From Desulfuromonadales bacterium (GTDB taxonomy: Bacteria; Desulfobacterota; Desulfuromonadia; Geobacterales; Pseudopelobacteraceae), in assembly GCA_013349325.1 (NCBI GenBank), contig DUZX01000005.1, forward strand, positions 62,001-126,000: DNA of 64,000 nt. The letters are read 5' to 3'. Below, piece by piece: positions 3,499 through 9,566 of the stretch. The notes beneath the pieces are model-generated. The model was given only the letters and a program-made list of their open reading frames with translations, searched no databases and was not told the origin of the DNA. Position 1 is the first letter of the stretch, and every line of letters starts with the position of its first letter. Made by a program: the position numbers and the translations under genes.

Positions 3499-4371
3499 TT
3501 ACGGCAGCAGCCCGTCGACCAGTTCCAGGACCAATTCGGAGCGATTGAGGGTGTAGATATGCACTCCCGGTACTCCGCTGGCCAGCAGTTCCTGCGCCTG
3601 GCGGCGGGCATGCGCCAGCCCGATTTTCTGCACTTCAGCCGAACCTCCGCGTTGGTCAGCTTCTTCAAGAGCCGCCAGAAATTCTGCCGGTATCGAAGCA
3701 CCGCACAACGACACAATCCGTTTGATGACTTTCAGGCTAACCACTGGCAGGATGCCGGGGATGATCGGTTTCGTGATTCCAGCTGTTGTGGCCCGGGCGA
3801 CAAAATCGTGATAGAGTTTATTATCGAAAAATAACTGGGTAATTGCAAAATCAGCCCCGTTTTCAAACTTGAGTTTCAGATACTGTAGGTCGGATTCGGG
3901 ACTCAGCGCTTCCGGGTGCGTTTCGGGATAGCCGGCGGCAGCCAGTCCAAAGCCGGGATGCGAGGAGCGGATAAATGCTGTCAGATCAGACGCATGCTGC
4001 AGAGTTGTGGCAGCAGCAGCTTCAGGCGGCATATCGGTAGGTCGGTCTCCGCGCAGCGCCAGTACGTTATCGACACCGGCATCCGCCAGGCGCTCCAGAA
4101 ACGTCAGCAATTCGTTCGGAGCGGATCCGATGCAGGTCAGATGGGCCATGGCTTCCAGGCCATGTTCGCATTTCAGCCGCGTAACGATATCGAGTGAATT
4201 ATCGTGGGTGCTTCCGCCGGCACCGTAGGTTACCGAGGCAAACAGTGGCTGCAGTGTGGCAAGCCGTTCAACAGTCTGAAAAAACGAGGGCCAGTCTTCA
4301 CGCAGCTTGGGCGGGAAGAATTCCAGCGAAATAAATTGCGTATCCGGCTTGATCCTGTCGATAATTTTCAT
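3499..4371 (-). CDS. metF: methylenetetrahydrofolate reductase
   Basis: FAD-dependent enzyme that reduces 5,10-methylene-THF to 5-methyl-THF for methionine synthesis and one-carbon flow. The 290-residue length fits bacterial MetF. Visible family motifs are the early SLEFFPPK, VTYGAGGST, AHLTCIG, LALRGDRP and the FAITQLFFDN segment, spread along a TIM-barrel fold. The ATG at 4371 is preceded by GAGGAC at correct spacing. It stands alone between convergent msrB and tRNA-Pro. No S-box riboswitch is recognisable in the roughly 270-base leader. Confidence 0.95.
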   Translation of the reverse strand: MKIIDRIKPDTQFISLEFFPPKLREDWPSFFQTVERLATLQPLFASVTYGAGGSTHDNSLDIVTRLKCEHGLEAMAHLTCIGSAPNELLTFLERLADAGVDNVLALRGDRPTDMPPEAAAATTLQHASDLTAFIRSSHPGFGLAAAGYPETHPEALSPESDLQYLKLKFENGADFAITQLFFDNKLYHDFVARATTAGITKPIIPGILPVVSLKVIKRIVSLCGASIPAEFLAALEEADQRGGSAEVQKIGLAHARRQAQELLASGVPGVHIYTLNRSELVLELVDGLLP

Positions 4372-4603
4372 GAAGTCCTCATGCGGTGCTGTCTGGTAGT
4401 GGTTCGTAAAGCGACACTCTTAATGATTTTCCGCTGGCGGCATAGAGAGTCCCCGTGACTCTTCTGGAGGTGGGCATATAAAATCGACGTTGTCAAAACG
4501 CTGGCTGCGTGAAATATCCTTAGCTGTGAAGAGCGAAATTTCATTTATGTTAAAGGAGTTGCGGCAGTTTAGCGCAAAGTATACTTTAACGTGTCTGATT
4601 TCT
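4372..4603. promoter_or_regulatory. upstream region of metF
   Basis: A leader of about 230 bases upstream of metF, read on the minus strand. It contains a short hairpin (AGAGTCAC-GGG-GACTCT type, about 4444-4466) and a TTGACA-like hexamer near 4490-4495. Neither is strong enough to name a regulator. A short minus-strand open frame (4420-4632) overlaps it but shows no family features. Confidence 0.3.
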
Positions 4604-4641
4604 ATAAAAAAGGGTTTACGGAAAACCCGCAAACCCTTTAT
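4604..4641 (-). terminator. terminator after tRNA-Pro
   Basis: Directly downstream of the tRNA 3' end, reading on the minus strand, AAAGGGTTT pairs with AAACCCTTT and is followed by a T run. Confidence 0.7.
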
Positions 4642-4644
4642 TTA

Positions 4645-4721
4645 TGGTCGGTGCGACAAGATTTGAACTTGCGACCACTAGACCCCCAGTCTAGTGCGCT
4701 ACCAGGCTGCGCTACGCACCG
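4645..4721 (-). tRNA. tRNA-Pro (anticodon GGG)
   Basis: Cloverleaf on the minus strand: acceptor CGGTGCG pairs with CGCACCG, the anticodon stem is CTAGA/TCTAG with loop CTGGGGG (anticodon GGG), the T loop is GTTCAAATC, and a CCA end is encoded in the DNA. tRNA genes are common integration sites. The decayed sequence at higher coordinates starts at its 5' side, which is not the usual side for tRNA-targeted integration. Confidence 0.95.
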
Positions 4722-4964
4722 AAATACTTTAAAATCAACAGGTTATCTTTGTTTTTCTTTCCCGCCTTAAAACTCGCTGTGCCTACTTTGTGCTAATTCT
4801 GATTTGATATCCTTTTTGCTTTGGGGAGGCAACCCTTTTTCTTACGTCAAAGGCGGCATCAAACGGACGGTGACTCTATTACATTTTGATTTCTCTGTCA
4901 AGTCAAAGGAGGAGGAGGTTCTACTTTGAATGAAACGACTTTTGGGCGGGTTTGAGGTCATTAG

Positions 4965-5180
4965 CACATATACCAGGGCACACAGGCTACAGCTCAATTT
5001 CCAAATGTTCCATTTCTTGTTGGTGGAACTAACTATCAAGACAACAAAGGGCGTCAAATGCAGCTACATTTATTGTTGGAAAAATTAGTAACAGAAGGTG
5101 AACGGTTTGATATCACACCTGTTTCAGAAGCAGTTTTTGAAAAAGCATCAGGTGTCAGCGGTTGCGTGAAAATGTCGTAA
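4965..5180 (+). pseudogene. gene remnant of unknown family
   Basis: Seventy-one open codons without a plausible start run into a TAA stop. The translation has a protein-like composition with a VPFLVGGTNYQDNKGR segment and a charged helical stretch after it. No ribosome-binding site or upstream continuation in the same frame is present, so it looks like the C-terminal piece of a lost gene. I do not recognise the family. Confidence 0.3.
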
Positions 5181-5261
5181 AACCGGCGGAATGAAAATGT
5201 ACGCATTTTATGCGTCCTCAATCTCAATTTGACGGCTCCTGGAAGGTTTCTTGTCGCCTTT

Positions 5262-5307
5262 CGTCTTTCATTGCGCTTTTGCGACCTTGCACACCTTTGC
5301 GTTAAAG
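5262..5307. repeat. dispersed CTTTGCG repeat, degenerate copy 1
   Basis: Degenerate copy of a motif with consensus near CGTCTTTGCG...CTTTGCGTTAAAG. Other copies lie at 31281-31309 and, inverted and best preserved, at 32471-32500. All three sit at edges of accessory modules. Confidence 0.5.
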
Positions 5308-5341
5308 CTTCTGACTTTGAACTTTTGCGTTAGACCTTTCC

Positions 5342-6094
5342 TCACTTCCTGTCCAGGCTTTCCAACAGGCGTATATAATCTTTCTGGCTTTCCCACACAC
5401 AGCAGGATATGAAGGCGATGAACGGTTTGTTATCACCCTTATTGGATTCCCGCAGGGCAGAGATATAGTCACCACGGATAATTGGTGTAATTATGGTGAT
5501 GGGGTAACCTGCCTGAAGCAAGGCTAGATTCATCAAAAGTCGTGCGGTTCTGCCGTTGCCGTCAATGAATGGATGGATGGTAACCAGGTTGAGGTGCAGC
5601 ATGGCGGCATATTCGACCGGATTAAGCTGCCTCAGAGAAGGCAAGTTGCCCAAGAACTCCTGCATGGCAAGCGGAACTGCGGCAGGTGTCGGTGGTGTGA
5701 AGTCGGTTCCTGTGATGATGACGTTGCGCTCCCGGTACTTGCCGGCGGTTTCAGATTCAATCCGGTAATAGAAAAGCCGGTGCAATCCAAGGATGTCGGC
5801 TTCCGTAATGTCCCGGCCATCTGACAGTTTATAAAGCAGGTCAAAAGCTTCACTGTGGCCGATAGCCTCAAAGTGGTCTTTCATCGGCTTTCCACCAATG
5901 GTGATGCCATCTTCCAGAACCACCTTGGTTTCGCTCTCGGTCAGACTGTTCCCTTCAAGAGCATTACTGGACCATGTGAGGCCGATGCGGTAATACTCCT
6001 TCAACTGCTTCACTTCATAAGAGTCAAGCGGTCGGTGTGCCCGTATCTTATCTTGGAGCTTATCGTTGTCGGTTAGTCGATTTTGGTAATTCAT
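5342..6094 (-). CDS. Fic family protein (predicted AMP-transferase), third gene of coupled cassette
   Basis: A 250-residue Fic-domain protein. Fic enzymes usually transfer AMP from ATP onto a hydroxyl group of a target protein. The catalytic motif is complete (HPFIDGNGRTARL, His near residue 172). An N-terminal inhibitory-helix motif of the S/TxxxE(G/N) type is present as SNALEGN near residues 43-49, the class II arrangement, suggesting an autoinhibited enzyme. The ATG overlaps the stop of the preceding gene by four bases (ATGA), so it is translationally coupled to the ATPase and nuclease-like genes. Target unknown; it could be a cassette effector or a toxin carried along. Confidence 0.88.
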   Translation of the reverse strand: MNYQNRLTDNDKLQDKIRAHRPLDSYEVKQLKEYYRIGLTWSSNALEGNSLTESETKVVLEDGITIGGKPMKDHFEAIGHSEAFDLLYKLSDGRDITEADILGLHRLFYYRIESETAGKYRERNVIITGTDFTPPTPAAVPLAMQEFLGNLPSLRQLNPVEYAAMLHLNLVTIHPFIDGNGRTARLLMNLALLQAGYPITIITPIIRGDYISALRESNKGDNKPFIAFISCCVWESQKDYIRLLESLDRK

Positions 6095-6636
6095 GGTGTA
6101 CTCTTTGCTGACACTCTGACAACCGGGTATTGAGGAAATATTGAAGTCCAGTTTGATTCTGTCAACACAATGCAGTCAGCCAAATAGTTGCGAGACCATG
6201 GCTGGTCTGCCTCATGCCGAATTCTTGCAAGCAATCGGTCTTTAAAACCAATCAGTAAAGCAGGGTCAAGAGTGAGCTTGTCAGCCCCAAGCAAGAACGC
6301 ATAAAGCATTGGACGACTATCTTTTTTCATCAAATGCAAATATGTGTAGCTATCCCTGGCTTTTGGTGTCAGCTCTTGCGAAATCAAAGAATCATTCTCT
6401 ATCTTCTTCGTAAAATCTGCTCTTGATTTTGCAATCGCTGCTTCGGCTTGTGGAGTTCCTCCCTTTGCGCTGCAAGAAGGGTCTTTTACTTCAATGAGCA
6501 GTAGCCTGGCATCGTCTTCTACAACAAAATCAACAAACTGCATCCCCTCAGGGAGCTTCCTTTTGGTGTCATCTAATTTATCCACTGATTTTGCCGCAGT
6601 AAAATCAAATTCCAATTCCCCTTCACGATATTTCAT
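6091..6636 (-). CDS. predicted PD-(D/E)XK-like protein, second gene of ATPase cassette
   Basis: A 181-residue protein with no family I can name. Near the N-terminus it has VDFVVEDDARLLLIEVKD, in which Asp36 and the pair Glu49/Lys51 on consecutive beta strands match the PD-(D/E)XK nuclease core (D...ExK). The C-terminal half is mixed helix and strand. The start codon overlaps the end of the ATPase gene by four bases, and its own stop overlaps the Fic start in the same way. The likely role is an effector or partner of the ATPase, possibly a nuclease. The nuclease assignment is inferred from motif spacing only. Confidence 0.55.
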   Translation of the reverse strand: MKYREGELEFDFTAAKSVDKLDDTKRKLPEGMQFVDFVVEDDARLLLIEVKDPSCSAKGGTPQAEAAIAKSRADFTKKIENDSLISQELTPKARDSYTYLHLMKKDSRPMLYAFLLGADKLTLDPALLIGFKDRLLARIRHEADQPWSRNYLADCIVLTESNWTSIFPQYPVVRVSAKSTP

Positions 6637-7667
6637 TCTTTTGCTCCCTTCAAAGCTCGAGCCATGTCACGTTGATAGAGGTCGGCAAAAGTAACCGCAA
6701 TAACATTCGGAACTATTGAAAGATATGAATTGGTTGGTTTGGCTGTGACCCCCTCAGACTCATCACGGAACAACGAGACATATTGAATTTGGTCAGTTTT
6801 TTTCTTTCGCAGGTCAAATTCTTTTAACAAGACATAATTATGGGTTGTGAGGAAAACTTGTACCCCCATCCTTTGTAGTTCAAGAATAACTTCAACAACT
6901 TCTCCCATTAGCGATGGATTAAGATTTGCTTCTGGTTCATCCCAGAAAAGAATAGAGCCATTCAAAAGAATCCCGTTTTGAATCAGCAACCATATCAATG
7001 CCAGCTTGCGCATTCCTTCTGCAAGCAGAGTAAACTCTAAATCACCCTGCTTGCTTTTGAGAAAAAAGTGTTCTCCCTTTGTTATCACTCTTCCTTCAAT
7101 CGCTTTTTGTAAGGCATTTAATAGCCGAGTGCGGTTTTTATCAATTGGTCCCATGAGTTTAGGGAGAAAAGCACGTTTGATAATGTCTATGTAAACTTCT
7201 TCAAAGGCGATTTCTCTTTTTGCCGCAGTAGCCAGAAACCCTGGTGCATGTGCAAGCATTTCCTTTACGGGGATATATGCACTTTCAAGTCGTTCTTTTT
7301 TCCATGTGGCTTCGCCAGTAGTTTTTACATCTTCAAACTTACTGGTGTGGTTAGAAAATTCGGCTGAAAGTTTTTGCCCACCCTGTCGAGTAACAAGAAC
7401 TTTTGTTGTAACGCTCTTTTTTAACCGAGAGGATAAACGTCCAATACGGCCTTCATATGGGCTAAAAGCGTTTCTTAGTTTAAGTCCAAATGGTTTCTCT
7501 TTGTCTTCACCTACTGTTATCGAACAAGCAGTGTACAGTATCTTTAATAAGTGAGTTTTACCTGAACCATTTGCCCCGATAAATACATTTATCCCGGGCG
7601 AAAAGCTCAAATCCAGACTAGAAAATGCGGTCACGTTTTCCAACTTCAATTGGGTTAATTTACTCAT
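6633..7667 (-). CDS. AAA/ABC-type ATPase (AAA_21/OLD-like), first gene of cassette
   Basis: A 344-residue ATPase with ABC-type organisation: Walker A GANGSGKTH (about residues 32-40), a long insert, a signature-like LLAEGMRKLALIW, Walker B with catalytic Glu in ILFWDEPEANLNP, and the H-loop LTTHNYVLL. There is no TOPRIM domain after it, so it is not a complete OLD nuclease. Related ATPases pair with separate nuclease or toxin subunits in phage-defence systems. I chose ATG 7667, which has a GGAGGT site at good spacing, over the GTG ten codons upstream. It heads a three-gene operon and lies 20 bases after a BrxA-like remnant. Confidence 0.85.
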   Translation of the reverse strand: MSKLTQLKLENVTAFSSLDLSFSPGINVFIGANGSGKTHLLKILYTACSITVGEDKEKPFGLKLRNAFSPYEGRIGRLSSRLKKSVTTKVLVTRQGGQKLSAEFSNHTSKFEDVKTTGEATWKKERLESAYIPVKEMLAHAPGFLATAAKREIAFEEVYIDIIKRAFLPKLMGPIDKNRTRLLNALQKAIEGRVITKGEHFFLKSKQGDLEFTLLAEGMRKLALIWLLIQNGILLNGSILFWDEPEANLNPSLMGEVVEVILELQRMGVQVFLTTHNYVLLKEFDLRKKKTDQIQYVSLFRDESEGVTAKPTNSYLSIVPNVIAVTFADLYQRDMARALKGAKE

Positions 7668-7686
7668 GTCATTACCTCCAAAAATT

Positions 7687-7920
7687 TCATAATACACCCA
7701 CTATTCTCGTGGCATAAAGCTCAAGCCGCTTCCTGATGAGTGTAGCCATGCGTTTGGCAGTAGCAGGGGATGTCCTCTGCAAGACATTGTCAACAACGAT
7801 TGCCCGCTGCCATGTCATTTTATCCGGTCCACTCAGTAGAATCCTTGCAATCTCCCTGCTCTCACGTTAAAACAATGAGCCGCCAGTAAGTTCAGCGTGG
7901 TAGATTTCTTCTGGGTTCAT
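7687..7920 (-). pseudogene. BrxA-like (DUF1819) remnant
   Basis: Reading on the minus strand from ATG 7920, the frame gives a start with YHAELTGGSLF, an in-frame TAA at codon 18 (7867-7869), then RESREIARILLSG and DNVLQRTSPATAKR before a stop at codon 78. This matches my memory of the N-terminal part of DUF1819/BrxA proteins, usually the first gene of BREX phage-defence operons and about 200 residues long. The gene is therefore both nonsense-mutated and truncated; the rest of a BREX operon is missing. The family assignment is from motif memory and needs a profile search. Confidence 0.6.
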
Positions 7921-8130
7921 ACGTGACCTATTAGAACAGTTCGGTACATGATTTTGAAGAGCTGTTAATATCACAGTTACCACCTGTCGTGCCATCTAAA
8001 TGACTTCAAAAAATTATTAGAATCATTGGATAAGGGGGCAAATATCCTTCTAGTTGAAAATGGTTTCAGTAATAACAAAGTCTGTCAAAATTGTCTAAAA
8101 TCCACTAGTGTCCGGAATAGTTGTATGTAA
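7921..8130. other. intergenic, nothing clear
   Basis: AT-rich region upstream of the BrxA-like remnant. It may keep the old promoter of that lost operon. No intact gene or recognisable site is seen. Confidence 0.35.
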
Positions 8131-8269
8131 CTATTCAGCACAGATTTTAAAAAGCTCGTCATCCCCGAGGGTTTAATCGGGAATCCAGGCTTTGACTTTT
8201 AGTGGATCCCCGATAGAATCACTCGTGGACGACAGGCTTTTTTGCTAGTTTGTTGAAAGTGCTGAATAG
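8131..8269. repeat. MITE-like repeat, copy 1 (139 bp)
   Basis: Bounded by perfect 11-bp terminal inverted repeats (CTATTCAGCAC ... GTGCTGAATAG). The interior contains AAAAAGCTCGTCATCCCCGA and ATCGGGAATCCAGGCTTTGA. A second copy in inverse orientation lies at 31050-31186 and a truncated copy at 22411-22474. It has no coding capacity. No clear target-site duplication is seen, although GTAA precedes the left end of both long copies. Confidence 0.75.
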
Positions 8270-8305
8270 GTGCGGCTAAATTACATAAGAAAGGATATAC
8301 GGAAT

Positions 8306-8668
8306 ATGACGAAACGAATATTGATTGCTGAAGATGACCTGATGAGCAGTGAAATGTTGGCCACATTTGCCAGAGGCAAAGGCTATGAGGTTGTTGCCGT
8401 CTTAGATGGTGTCGAGCTTTTAACGATGCTTGCGGAGCAGCAGTTTGATGTCATTATCACCGATCTGATGATGGCGACGCTGGATGGTGCCTCAGCCACT
8501 GAAATAATGAGGATGCTGGAGATAACAACGCCGGTTATCGCACTAACGGCACTCTCAGCTGATGAGATTGAGCTTGTCAAAGACAAATTTATTAAAGTGT
8601 ATCAAAAACCGTGTGACTTTAACGCGTTATTTGAGTGTGTGTCGTTGTTGACCGGCGAAGCAGCGTGA
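8306..8668 (+). CDS. single-domain response regulator
   Basis: A 120-residue stand-alone CheY-like receiver. The acidic pocket is EDD near residues 9-11, the phospho-acceptor Asp lies in DVIITDLMM, the switch Thr in IALTA and the conserved Lys in VYQKP. No output domain follows. ATG 8306 is chosen because AAGAAAGG precedes it; the open frame upstream reaches into the MITE-like repeat, which ends only 36 bases earlier, so the promoter may be repeat-derived. No histidine kinase is adjacent, so its partner is unknown. Confidence 0.85.
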   Translation: MTKRILIAEDDLMSSEMLATFARGKGYEVVAVLDGVELLTMLAEQQFDVIITDLMMATLDGASATEIMRMLEITTPVIALTALSADEIELVKDKFIKVYQKPCDFNALFECVSLLTGEAA

Positions 8669-8732
8669 CCCTCTTCATCCTGGATTTGAGAAATTCCCAT
8701 GCTGGTTCTGTGGTGTCCGTTTTGGCTTACAA

Positions 8733-9566
8733 TCACAATTTGAAGTTTTTTTTGAAAATATGCAGAACAGCGGCAATAAGAAGCATCAATGAAACAACAC
8801 CAGCCCCTGCCATTTTGCGTTTCCAAATAGTAGTATCCATCTGGACAAGCGCGTCCCTGATTTTATACAGTTCAGCCTGAATCACGACAGACTCCTTTGT
8901 GACTAAATCAACATTCACGTTATGAAAGAGTGAGTGGAAGTGATTCCGTACGGTAAAAAGTTCCTTCTCCAACTTTTCCGTATCAGTGCCGATACTTTTG
9001 AAAGCAATGAGCCGCATGTCAAGAGCTACAATCATTGCCTCTGTATTCTGCATGGAGGCGAGGATGGTGCGGGCGCGGTCAAAACTGTGGCAACGACTAC
9101 AGCTCTTTTCATTGATAAGTTCAAGCGATGCTTTAATGATGTGATGATTTCCGTGACAGGTGACACAGGTCGGTCCCCCTTTGCCAAGCATACGTCCATG
9201 AGCACTGGTCAGATAGTCCTTGAGCACGCCAACATGACAACGGCCACAAAAAGCCGGAATGGCAGGTTCTTTGGGTGCTCCCAGGAATCCGCGTGCAGGG
9301 CTCATGGCGTTAACGGCATCCTGCGGGTCACCTCCGTGACAGCCGCTACAAAAGATACCATTCTCCGCATGAATACTTGTCCGCCAGAGTGTGACCGGCA
9401 GGCTGTACTTTTCGGGTAGCGTGGAGTGACACGTGATGCAAACCGGCTCGGCTGCTCCCTGTGCAGAAACCTGCGTCGATACAAGACAGGCGGTGATTAC
9501 CAGGAGCAGCGCAGACAGAAGCGTGCGCGTGACATAATGTATTGTGATGAGAGTCCGGTATTTCAT
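8733..9566 (-). CDS. pentaheme c-type cytochrome with C-terminal membrane anchor
   Basis: A 277-residue exported protein with a signal segment (about 1-35), five CxxCH heme sites (residues 43-47, 73-77, 107-111, 134-138 and 156-160), and a hydrophobic segment near 250-270 followed by a basic tail. It should sit on the periplasmic side of the inner membrane. Its ATG overlaps the stop of the cytochrome b gene by four bases, so it is very likely the electron-accepting subunit of the Rieske/cytochrome b complex, taking the place of cytochrome c1. I do not recognise an exact named family. Confidence 0.88.
   Translation of the reverse strand: MKYRTLITIHYVTRTLLSALLLVITACLVSTQVSAQGAAEPVCITCHSTLPEKYSLPVTLWRTSIHAENGIFCSGCHGGDPQDAVNAMSPARGFLGAPKEPAIPAFCGRCHVGVLKDYLTSAHGRMLGKGGPTCVTCHGNHHIIKASLELINEKSCSRCHSFDRARTILASMQNTEAMIVALDMRLIAFKSIGTDTEKLEKELFTVRNHFHSLFHNVNVDLVTKESVVIQAELYKIRDALVQMDTTIWKRKMAGAGVVSLMLLIAAVLHIFKKNFKL

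What the first reader, a model, noticed from the sequence alone, without database searches (positions are those of the whole stretch)
7687..7920. BrxA-like (DUF1819) remnant directly upstream of the ATPase cassette
A 78-codon frame with a nonsense codon at position 18 and truncation reads as the N-terminal part of BrxA, the usual first gene of BREX operons. The cassette may have replaced a BREX system behind its original promoter, a defence-slot exchange caught in the act.
Basis: partly seen in the sequence, partly recalled or inferred. Interest (0 to 1): 0.65.

Follow-up and report, generated by a model that had tools for sequence, protein, structure and literature searches.

The report
BREX relic beside surviving defence genes
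A broken stump of a BREX anti-phage gene sits just upstream of three intact defence-type genes, which are most likely passengers that outlived the BREX system that once carried them.

Summary
On the minus strand, 7920-7690 encodes the first ~70 residues of BrxA (Pfam E 3.6e-15; PADLOC 3.3e-25), with a nonsense codon at position 18, a frame change near codon 68 and loss of the rest. It is the only BrxA match in this 99.96%-complete genome, and no PglZ reaches cut-off. The "ATPase cassette" is PADLOC HEC-02A/B (ABC ATPase plus a probable PD-(D/E)XK nuclease) and a Fic gene, chained by ATGA overlaps. The closest brxA and the closest Fic (95% aa) among 141 genomes of the order lie in one intact type I BREX operon (genome G107), where Fic fills the pglX-pglZ slot. 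HEC-02 is embedded in BREX-type operons elsewhere: a PglXI-type gene precedes it in 8 of 47 scanned upstream neighbours. I read the locus as a decayed BREX operon whose embedded cargo survived, not as a cassette that replaced BREX behind its promoter: the regulator-like gene upstream of brxA in the two nearest operons is absent. Independent arrival of HEC-02 and Fic beside a relic is the main rival. Modest interest; known kinds of parts.

The parts
7690..7920 (-). brxA pseudogene: N-terminal third of BrxA (DUF1819); similarity to intact brxA ends near 7697
7867..7869 (-). in-frame TAA, codon 18 of the relic
6633..7667 (-). HEC-02A, ABC/AAA_21 ATPase, 344 aa, open; GGAGG before its ATG
   Evidence: PADLOC HEC-02A 1.6e-125, AAA_21 4.2e-26; sequence
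6091..6636 (-). HEC-02B, 181 aa, probable PD-(D/E)XK nuclease; overlaps HEC-02A by ATGA
   Evidence: PADLOC HEC-02B 3.7e-61; D36 and E49 invariant, K51 at least 90% in 52 sequences; model pLDDT 94.5, weak fold matches; overlap
5342..6094 (-). Fic protein, 250 aa (PADLOC PDC-S04/SoFic-like); overlaps HEC-02B by ATGA; closest relative lies in the BREX operon of G107
8126..8269 (.). dispersed repeat of about 143 bases with inverted ends, upstream of the relic
   Evidence: 10 other copies over 100 bases in the genome, plus four shorter matches
4645..4721 (-). tRNA-Pro (GGG), on the far side of the three genes

Best explanation
The locus is the remains of a type I BREX operon. In the ancestor, HEC-02A-HEC-02B-Fic sat as embedded cargo inside the operon, most likely in the pglX-pglZ slot, in the same strand and order as now. 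One deletion joined brxA (about base 224 of the relic) to the stretch just before the HEC-02A ribosome-binding site, removing the rest of brxA, brxB, brxC and pglX; another loss removed pglZ and brxL downstream of Fic; the brxA stump also carries a nonsense codon and a frame change. The three cargo genes stayed open. Inferred function: HEC-02A (ATPase) senses or is triggered by phage activity and licenses the HEC-02B nuclease; Fic, with HPFIDGNGR and the S-x-x-x-E-G motif of self-inhibited Fic proteins (motifs recalled), is a controlled AMP-transferase that may act as a second effector. Shown: the relic, the open cargo genes, the sister operon. Inferred: the deletions, the slot, and all function.
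For: Closest brxA among 141 genomes of the order is G107 (62% aa), closest Fic is also G107 (95% aa; 88.6% nt), and both are in one operon with open frames for brxA, brxB, brxC, pglX, DUF2971, Fic, pglZ, brxL. The same slot holds Fic in G122 (after a ParA-like and a RelA/SpoT-like gene; core genes confirmed) and in G045 contig 85 (pglX end, Fic, pglZ). Fic overlaps the gene before it by ATGA both in G107 and here. In the Fic DNA tree, window, G107 and G045C90 form one group (99/99; order inside it unresolved). HEC-02 lies directly behind a PglXI-type gene in 8 of 47 upstream neighbours scanned (each confirmed, one of them scoring higher as a type II methyltransferase) and behind BrxC in one; downstream, 6 of 44 match BrxH helicase, 1 PglZ, 1 PglX. 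Published precedent: the Salmonella StySA BREX has an ATPase-DUF4435 cargo between pglX and pglZ, reported on a transcript apart from brxA-pglX (PMC9009780, passages); ABC-ATPase plus PD-(D/E)XK pairs inside BREX loci are catalogued (PMC12839542, section 35 part 1 of 2).
Against: This Fic family is promiscuous: of 12 other full-length places in the order at 74% identity or more, only 3 are in BREX; others stand alone or beside restriction genes, though in four of the nine the contig ends within 400 bases of Fic. G045C90, in the same tree group, is not in BREX on its visible side. None of 80 HEC-02 loci has this Fic or a BrxA that my profile finds. No remnant of brxB, brxC, pglX, pglZ or brxL was found in the 64 kb window. 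No HEC-02 in a type I pglX-pglZ slot was found among the 80 best of 505 loci. The 5' part of the relic is no closer to G107 than to G122 (63% each), and upstream DNA is unlike G107.
Confidence: 0.6

Rival explanations
1. Independent arrivals: BREX decayed here first, leaving only a brxA stump; HEC-02 and later Fic were then added next to it in a general defence hotspot, with HEC-02 landing by chance behind the stump.
For: Fic of this kind is often alone or next to restriction genes; HEC-02 is found beside many different genes; HEC-02 came with this Fic in 0 of 80 loci.
Against: Both the nearest brxA and the nearest Fic come from one operon; strand, order and the ATGA joint with Fic are as in G107. 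With 12 comparable Fic places, the nearest being that very one has a chance of about 1 in 12 (my arithmetic, treating places as equal), so this rival is not excluded.
Confidence: 0.22
2. Replacement as first proposed: HEC-02-Fic inserted into brxA of a working BREX operon and took over its promoter.
For: The end of brxA similarity lies 29 bases before the HEC-02A start.
Against: The small gene that precedes brxA in G107 and G122 is missing; HEC-02A has its own ribosome-binding site; the stump has lesions beyond truncation; promoter-like sites in 4300-8800 are at chance level (8 found, 6.8 expected).
Confidence: 0.08
3. The cargo sat in another BREX layout, between brxC and pglX or behind PglXI of a type 3-like operon, and one deletion fused it to brxA.
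For: In L071 HEC-02A lies between a BrxC and a PglX gene (its second gene does not match HEC-02B); eight loci have a PglXI-type gene directly upstream.
Against: The stump is closest to a brxA that heads a type I operon, and the BREX copies of Fic that I saw are in the pglX-pglZ slot, 3 of 3.
Confidence: 0.1

Closest known systems
Type I BREX operon of genome G107 (L212 + L215)
   Same: brxA (3' part of the stump 86 of 96 bases), Fic at 95% aa in the same strand and with the same ATGA overlap
   Different: G107 has the whole core (brxA, brxB, brxC, pglX, pglZ, brxL) and DUF2971 in the place of HEC-02; the window has no core gene but the stump
StySA, the BREX system of Salmonella LT2 (PMC9009780)
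   Same: A two-gene ATPase cargo in the pglX-pglZ slot (passages)
   Different: Cargo there is ATPase-DUF4435, not HEC-02, and the BREX core is present
HEC-02 (PADLOC embedded candidate), e.g. L044, L046
   Same: HEC-02A and HEC-02B side by side; 67% and 76% HEC-02A identity
   Different: There the pair is embedded behind a PglXI-type gene and before PglZ (L044) or a BrxH helicase (L046)

Membership tests
BrxA (PF08849) | Sequence match over the family profile | tested here: met
   N-terminal third only, 56.6 bits over cut-off 23
BrxA (PF08849) | Full-length open reading frame of about 200 residues | tested here: not met
   Nonsense codon, frame change, truncation; filed as a pseudogene
Type I BREX system | Core genes brxB, brxC, pglX, pglZ, brxL next to brxA | tested here: not met
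   None found in the window by tblastn with the G107 proteins; genome-wide only BrxA and PglZ were searched: the stump, and one PglZ match below cut-off
HEC-02 | HEC-02A ATPase followed by HEC-02B | tested here: met
   PADLOC 1.6e-125 and 3.7e-61; second gene found within 200 bases in 65 of 80 relatives
HEC-02 | Anti-phage activity | not testable with these tools
   No experiment possible
PD-(D/E)XK nuclease (HEC-02B) | D...E-x-K active-site residues | tested here: met
   D36 and E49 invariant, K51 at least 90% in 52 sequences; that this is the family's pattern is recalled
PD-(D/E)XK nuclease (HEC-02B) | Fold match to solved members | tested here: inconclusive
   Restriction-enzyme chains among the best rows (BspD6I, BstEII, FokI, EcoO109I), but Z at most 7.3 and Foldseek E at best 0.026, none under 0.001
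Fic AMP-transferase, self-inhibited class | Fic domain, HPFx[D/E]GN[G/K]R and S/TxxxE[G/N] motifs | tested here: met
   PF02661 2.7e-23; HPFIDGNGR and SNALEG present in the translation; motifs recalled
PARIS (AriA-AriB) | AriA ATPase paired with a TOPRIM AriB | tested here: not met
   HEC-02A also matches AriA, far weaker (1e-25); the partner gene's 11 matches are all HEC-02, none AriB, and it has a D...ExK pattern

The most novel reading that the evidence does not exclude
The HEC-02A-HEC-02B-Fic trio is a self-sufficient effector unit that works without BREX, was carried as a backup inside a BREX operon, and has been kept by selection after the host system was lost, so that embedded cargo outlives and moves between host defence operons.
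Probability: 0.35. Interest if true: 0.5.

Novelty: new member of a known kind. Interest (0 to 1): 0.33.

Why it matters
If right, this locus is a natural test of whether cargo embedded in BREX operons is only a helper of BREX or an independent defence: here the cargo genes remain open in a genome where the only BrxA is this stump and no PglZ reaches cut-off. It also shows how a relic of one defence gene can point to the former host operon of genes that now look unrelated.

Tried and rejected
Chance match: rejected. Assembly error as sole cause: unlikely, since a nonsense codon, a frame change and a truncation occur together. BrxA as a normal partner of HEC-02: 0 of 80 loci with my profile from eight BrxA proteins (distant type 3 BrxA could be missed, and many loci are short). 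Fic as a normal partner of HEC-02: 0 of 80. Remnants of pglZ or brxL in 4722-5341: none found; a 71-residue frame at 4965-5180 matched no Pfam or PHROGs family. Same gene order in relatives: not seen in the nine stretches read. Close copies of the stump in viral contigs: none; in E. coli genomes, near mode: none; plasmids (457 records) and phages (4) hold only matches under 60% identity. On plasmids Fic matched 55 records, each under 60%, and HEC-02A one record at 37%. Calibration of G107 divergence with cytochrome b DNA failed, no match in G107 or G122. A solved-structure profile search for HEC-02B gave one row, a ferritin at E 0.028; for HEC-02A only general ATPase rows, best E 3.7e-6. Neighbour counts: of 80 HEC-02 loci, 4 gave no HEC-02A frame in my script and were dropped, and only same-strand neighbours within 200 bases were kept, 47 upstream and 44 downstream; one of the 47 (L058) is a piece of HEC-02A itself. 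Papers: searches of the held library; none holds both HEC-02 and BREX, and Fic does not occur in the main text of PMC12839542. PMC12255303 and PMC9716671 were seen as passages.

Full report
What is there. It begins with ATG at 7920, has a TAA as codon 18 and ends in a stop at 7687-7689. With X at the internal stop it matches BrxA in Pfam (3.6e-15), in seven PADLOC models (best 3.3e-25) and two solved chains, 3bhw (deposited as uncharacterized) and 7zge (BrxA); no NCBIfam model was hit. It covers Pfam profile positions 2-64 of 184. Against the closest intact gene, DNA similarity continues past codon 68 with a one-base length difference and stops at about 7697. The relic is uneven: 56 of 89 bases agree with G107 in the 5' part and 86 of 96 in the 3' part, while two intact genes, G107 and G122, agree at 67 of 90 and 67 of 100. 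This could mean a past recombination between brxA lineages; I did not test it further.

The genome. This is the only BrxA match (E up to 0.001) in the window's own genome, which is listed as 99.96% complete, and the one PglZ match there is below the curated cut-off. The other core genes were searched in the window only. Among 58 genomes searched as relatives, own included, 9 hold BrxA; among 141 genomes of the order, 8 hold a match to the stump, own included; among 395 drawn from the phylum, 9, own included.

The cassette. The three genes downstream are HEC-02A (ATPase), HEC-02B and Fic. Each overlaps the next by ATGA. HEC-02A also matches PARIS AriA, but far more weakly (1e-25 against 1.6e-125). 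HEC-02B has invariant V35, D36, E49 and K92 and nearly invariant K51 in 52 sequences, and its predicted structure (pLDDT 94.5) resembles restriction-type nucleases only weakly (best Z 7.3; best Foldseek E 0.026). I call it a probable PD-(D/E)XK nuclease, mainly on the residues. The search for HEC-02A relatives found 505 loci and kept the best 80; 65 of the 80 have a detectable HEC-02B within 200 bases after it, and none has this Fic.

The link to BREX. The nearest brxA and the nearest Fic in the order lie in one type I operon in genome G107 with open frames throughout: a small RHH-like gene (by eye), brxA, brxB, brxC, pglX, DUF2971, Fic, pglZ, brxL. G122 has the same core, confirmed by model and by tblastn, with a ParA-like and a RelA/SpoT-like gene before Fic, and G045 contig 85 has the end of pglX, Fic and pglZ. 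Thus in these three the slot between pglX and pglZ varies in its first members and keeps Fic. In a tree of 16 Fic genes the window groups with G107 and G045C90 (99/99 on DNA, order inside unresolved; on protein only a five-row group is supported, 95/95). G045C90 is not in BREX on its visible side. Of the 12 other full-length Fic places in the order at 74% identity or more, 3 are in BREX; of the other 9, four lie within 400 bases of a contig end, so their far side is unseen; a thirteenth place, G136, is cut by a contig end. So Fic alone proves little; the argument rests on brxA and Fic pointing to the same operon, on their order and strand, and on the shared joint.

HEC-02 and BREX. Of the 80 loci, 47 gave a same-strand gene close upstream; 8 of these match PglXI (L030, L032, L041, L042, L044, L046, L049, L062; L062 scores higher as a type II methyltransferase) and one is BrxC (L071). 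Of 44 close downstream genes, 6 match the BrxH helicase model best (L030, L033, L041, L042, L046, L058), one PglZ (L044) and one PglX (L071); L030 and L058 are contigs of one strain with the same helicase. These hosts could be BREX or the BREX-related systems of PMC12839542. So HEC-02 is a recurrent passenger of such operons, but most of the 80 loci show no BREX model beside it in these scans. This is in line with the term embedded candidate (PMC12988326, passages) and with the catalogue of ABC-ATPase and PD-(D/E)XK pairs in BREX loci (PMC12839542, section 35 part 1 of 2). In Salmonella StySA the ATPase-DUF4435 pair lies between pglX and pglZ, is not needed for methylation, and is reported on a transcript apart from brxA-pglX (PMC9009780, passages).

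Why not replacement behind the promoter. The small gene before brxA in G107 and G122 is missing from the window, and the upstream DNA shows nothing better than an 18-base match at E 0.025. The nearest upstream feature is a dispersed repeat of about 143 bases. Promoter-like sites are no more frequent than in shuffled sequence.

The site. In the nine relatives read (eight of the genus, one of the order) the cytochrome genes are together, but MTHFR and the tRNA-Pro are not beside them and no BREX gene lies in the fetched stretch; in one (L140) the stretch ends just after them. So whether other strains of this species still have BREX here is open.

Selection. Fic against G107 has dS 0.62, dN 0.026 and a ratio of 0.042 by a simple count in my script, so it has been under strong purifying selection over the two lineages together; this does not show selection after BREX was lost. 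For 32 codons of the stump the ratio is 0.12, too few to date the loss.

Verdict. A real brxA pseudogene; most likely the last trace of a type I BREX operon whose embedded cargo survived (0.6).

Noticed in passing
window 8126-8269: A dispersed repeat of about 143 bases with inverted ends (CTATTCAGCAC...GTGCTGAATAG), 10 other copies over 100 bases in the genome plus four shorter matches.
   Followed up: partly
window 4645-4721; G027:C13 near 59943 and 62254; G059:C672 near 1958 and 4259: The 3' half of this tRNA-Pro recurs about 2.3 kb apart in two relatives, as attachment sites of a small integrating element might.
   Followed up: no
L030, L032, L033, L046 against L029, L031, L034: HEC-02A is equally close in both sets (74-76%) while HEC-02B is 30-33% in one and 62-69% in the other, which suggests that the nuclease partner is swapped behind a conserved ATPase.
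   Followed up: no
L217 740-7500: In the BREX operon of G037 an ATPase-like gene (351 aa, P-loop by eye) and a 271-residue gene sit between pglZ and brxL, a second cargo slot.
   Followed up: partly
window 7697-7920: The brxA stump is a mosaic: its 5' part is far less like G107 than its 3' part.
   Followed up: partly
window 4965-5180: A 71-residue open frame on the plus strand without any Pfam or PHROGs match, in the gap between the tRNA and Fic.
   Followed up: partly
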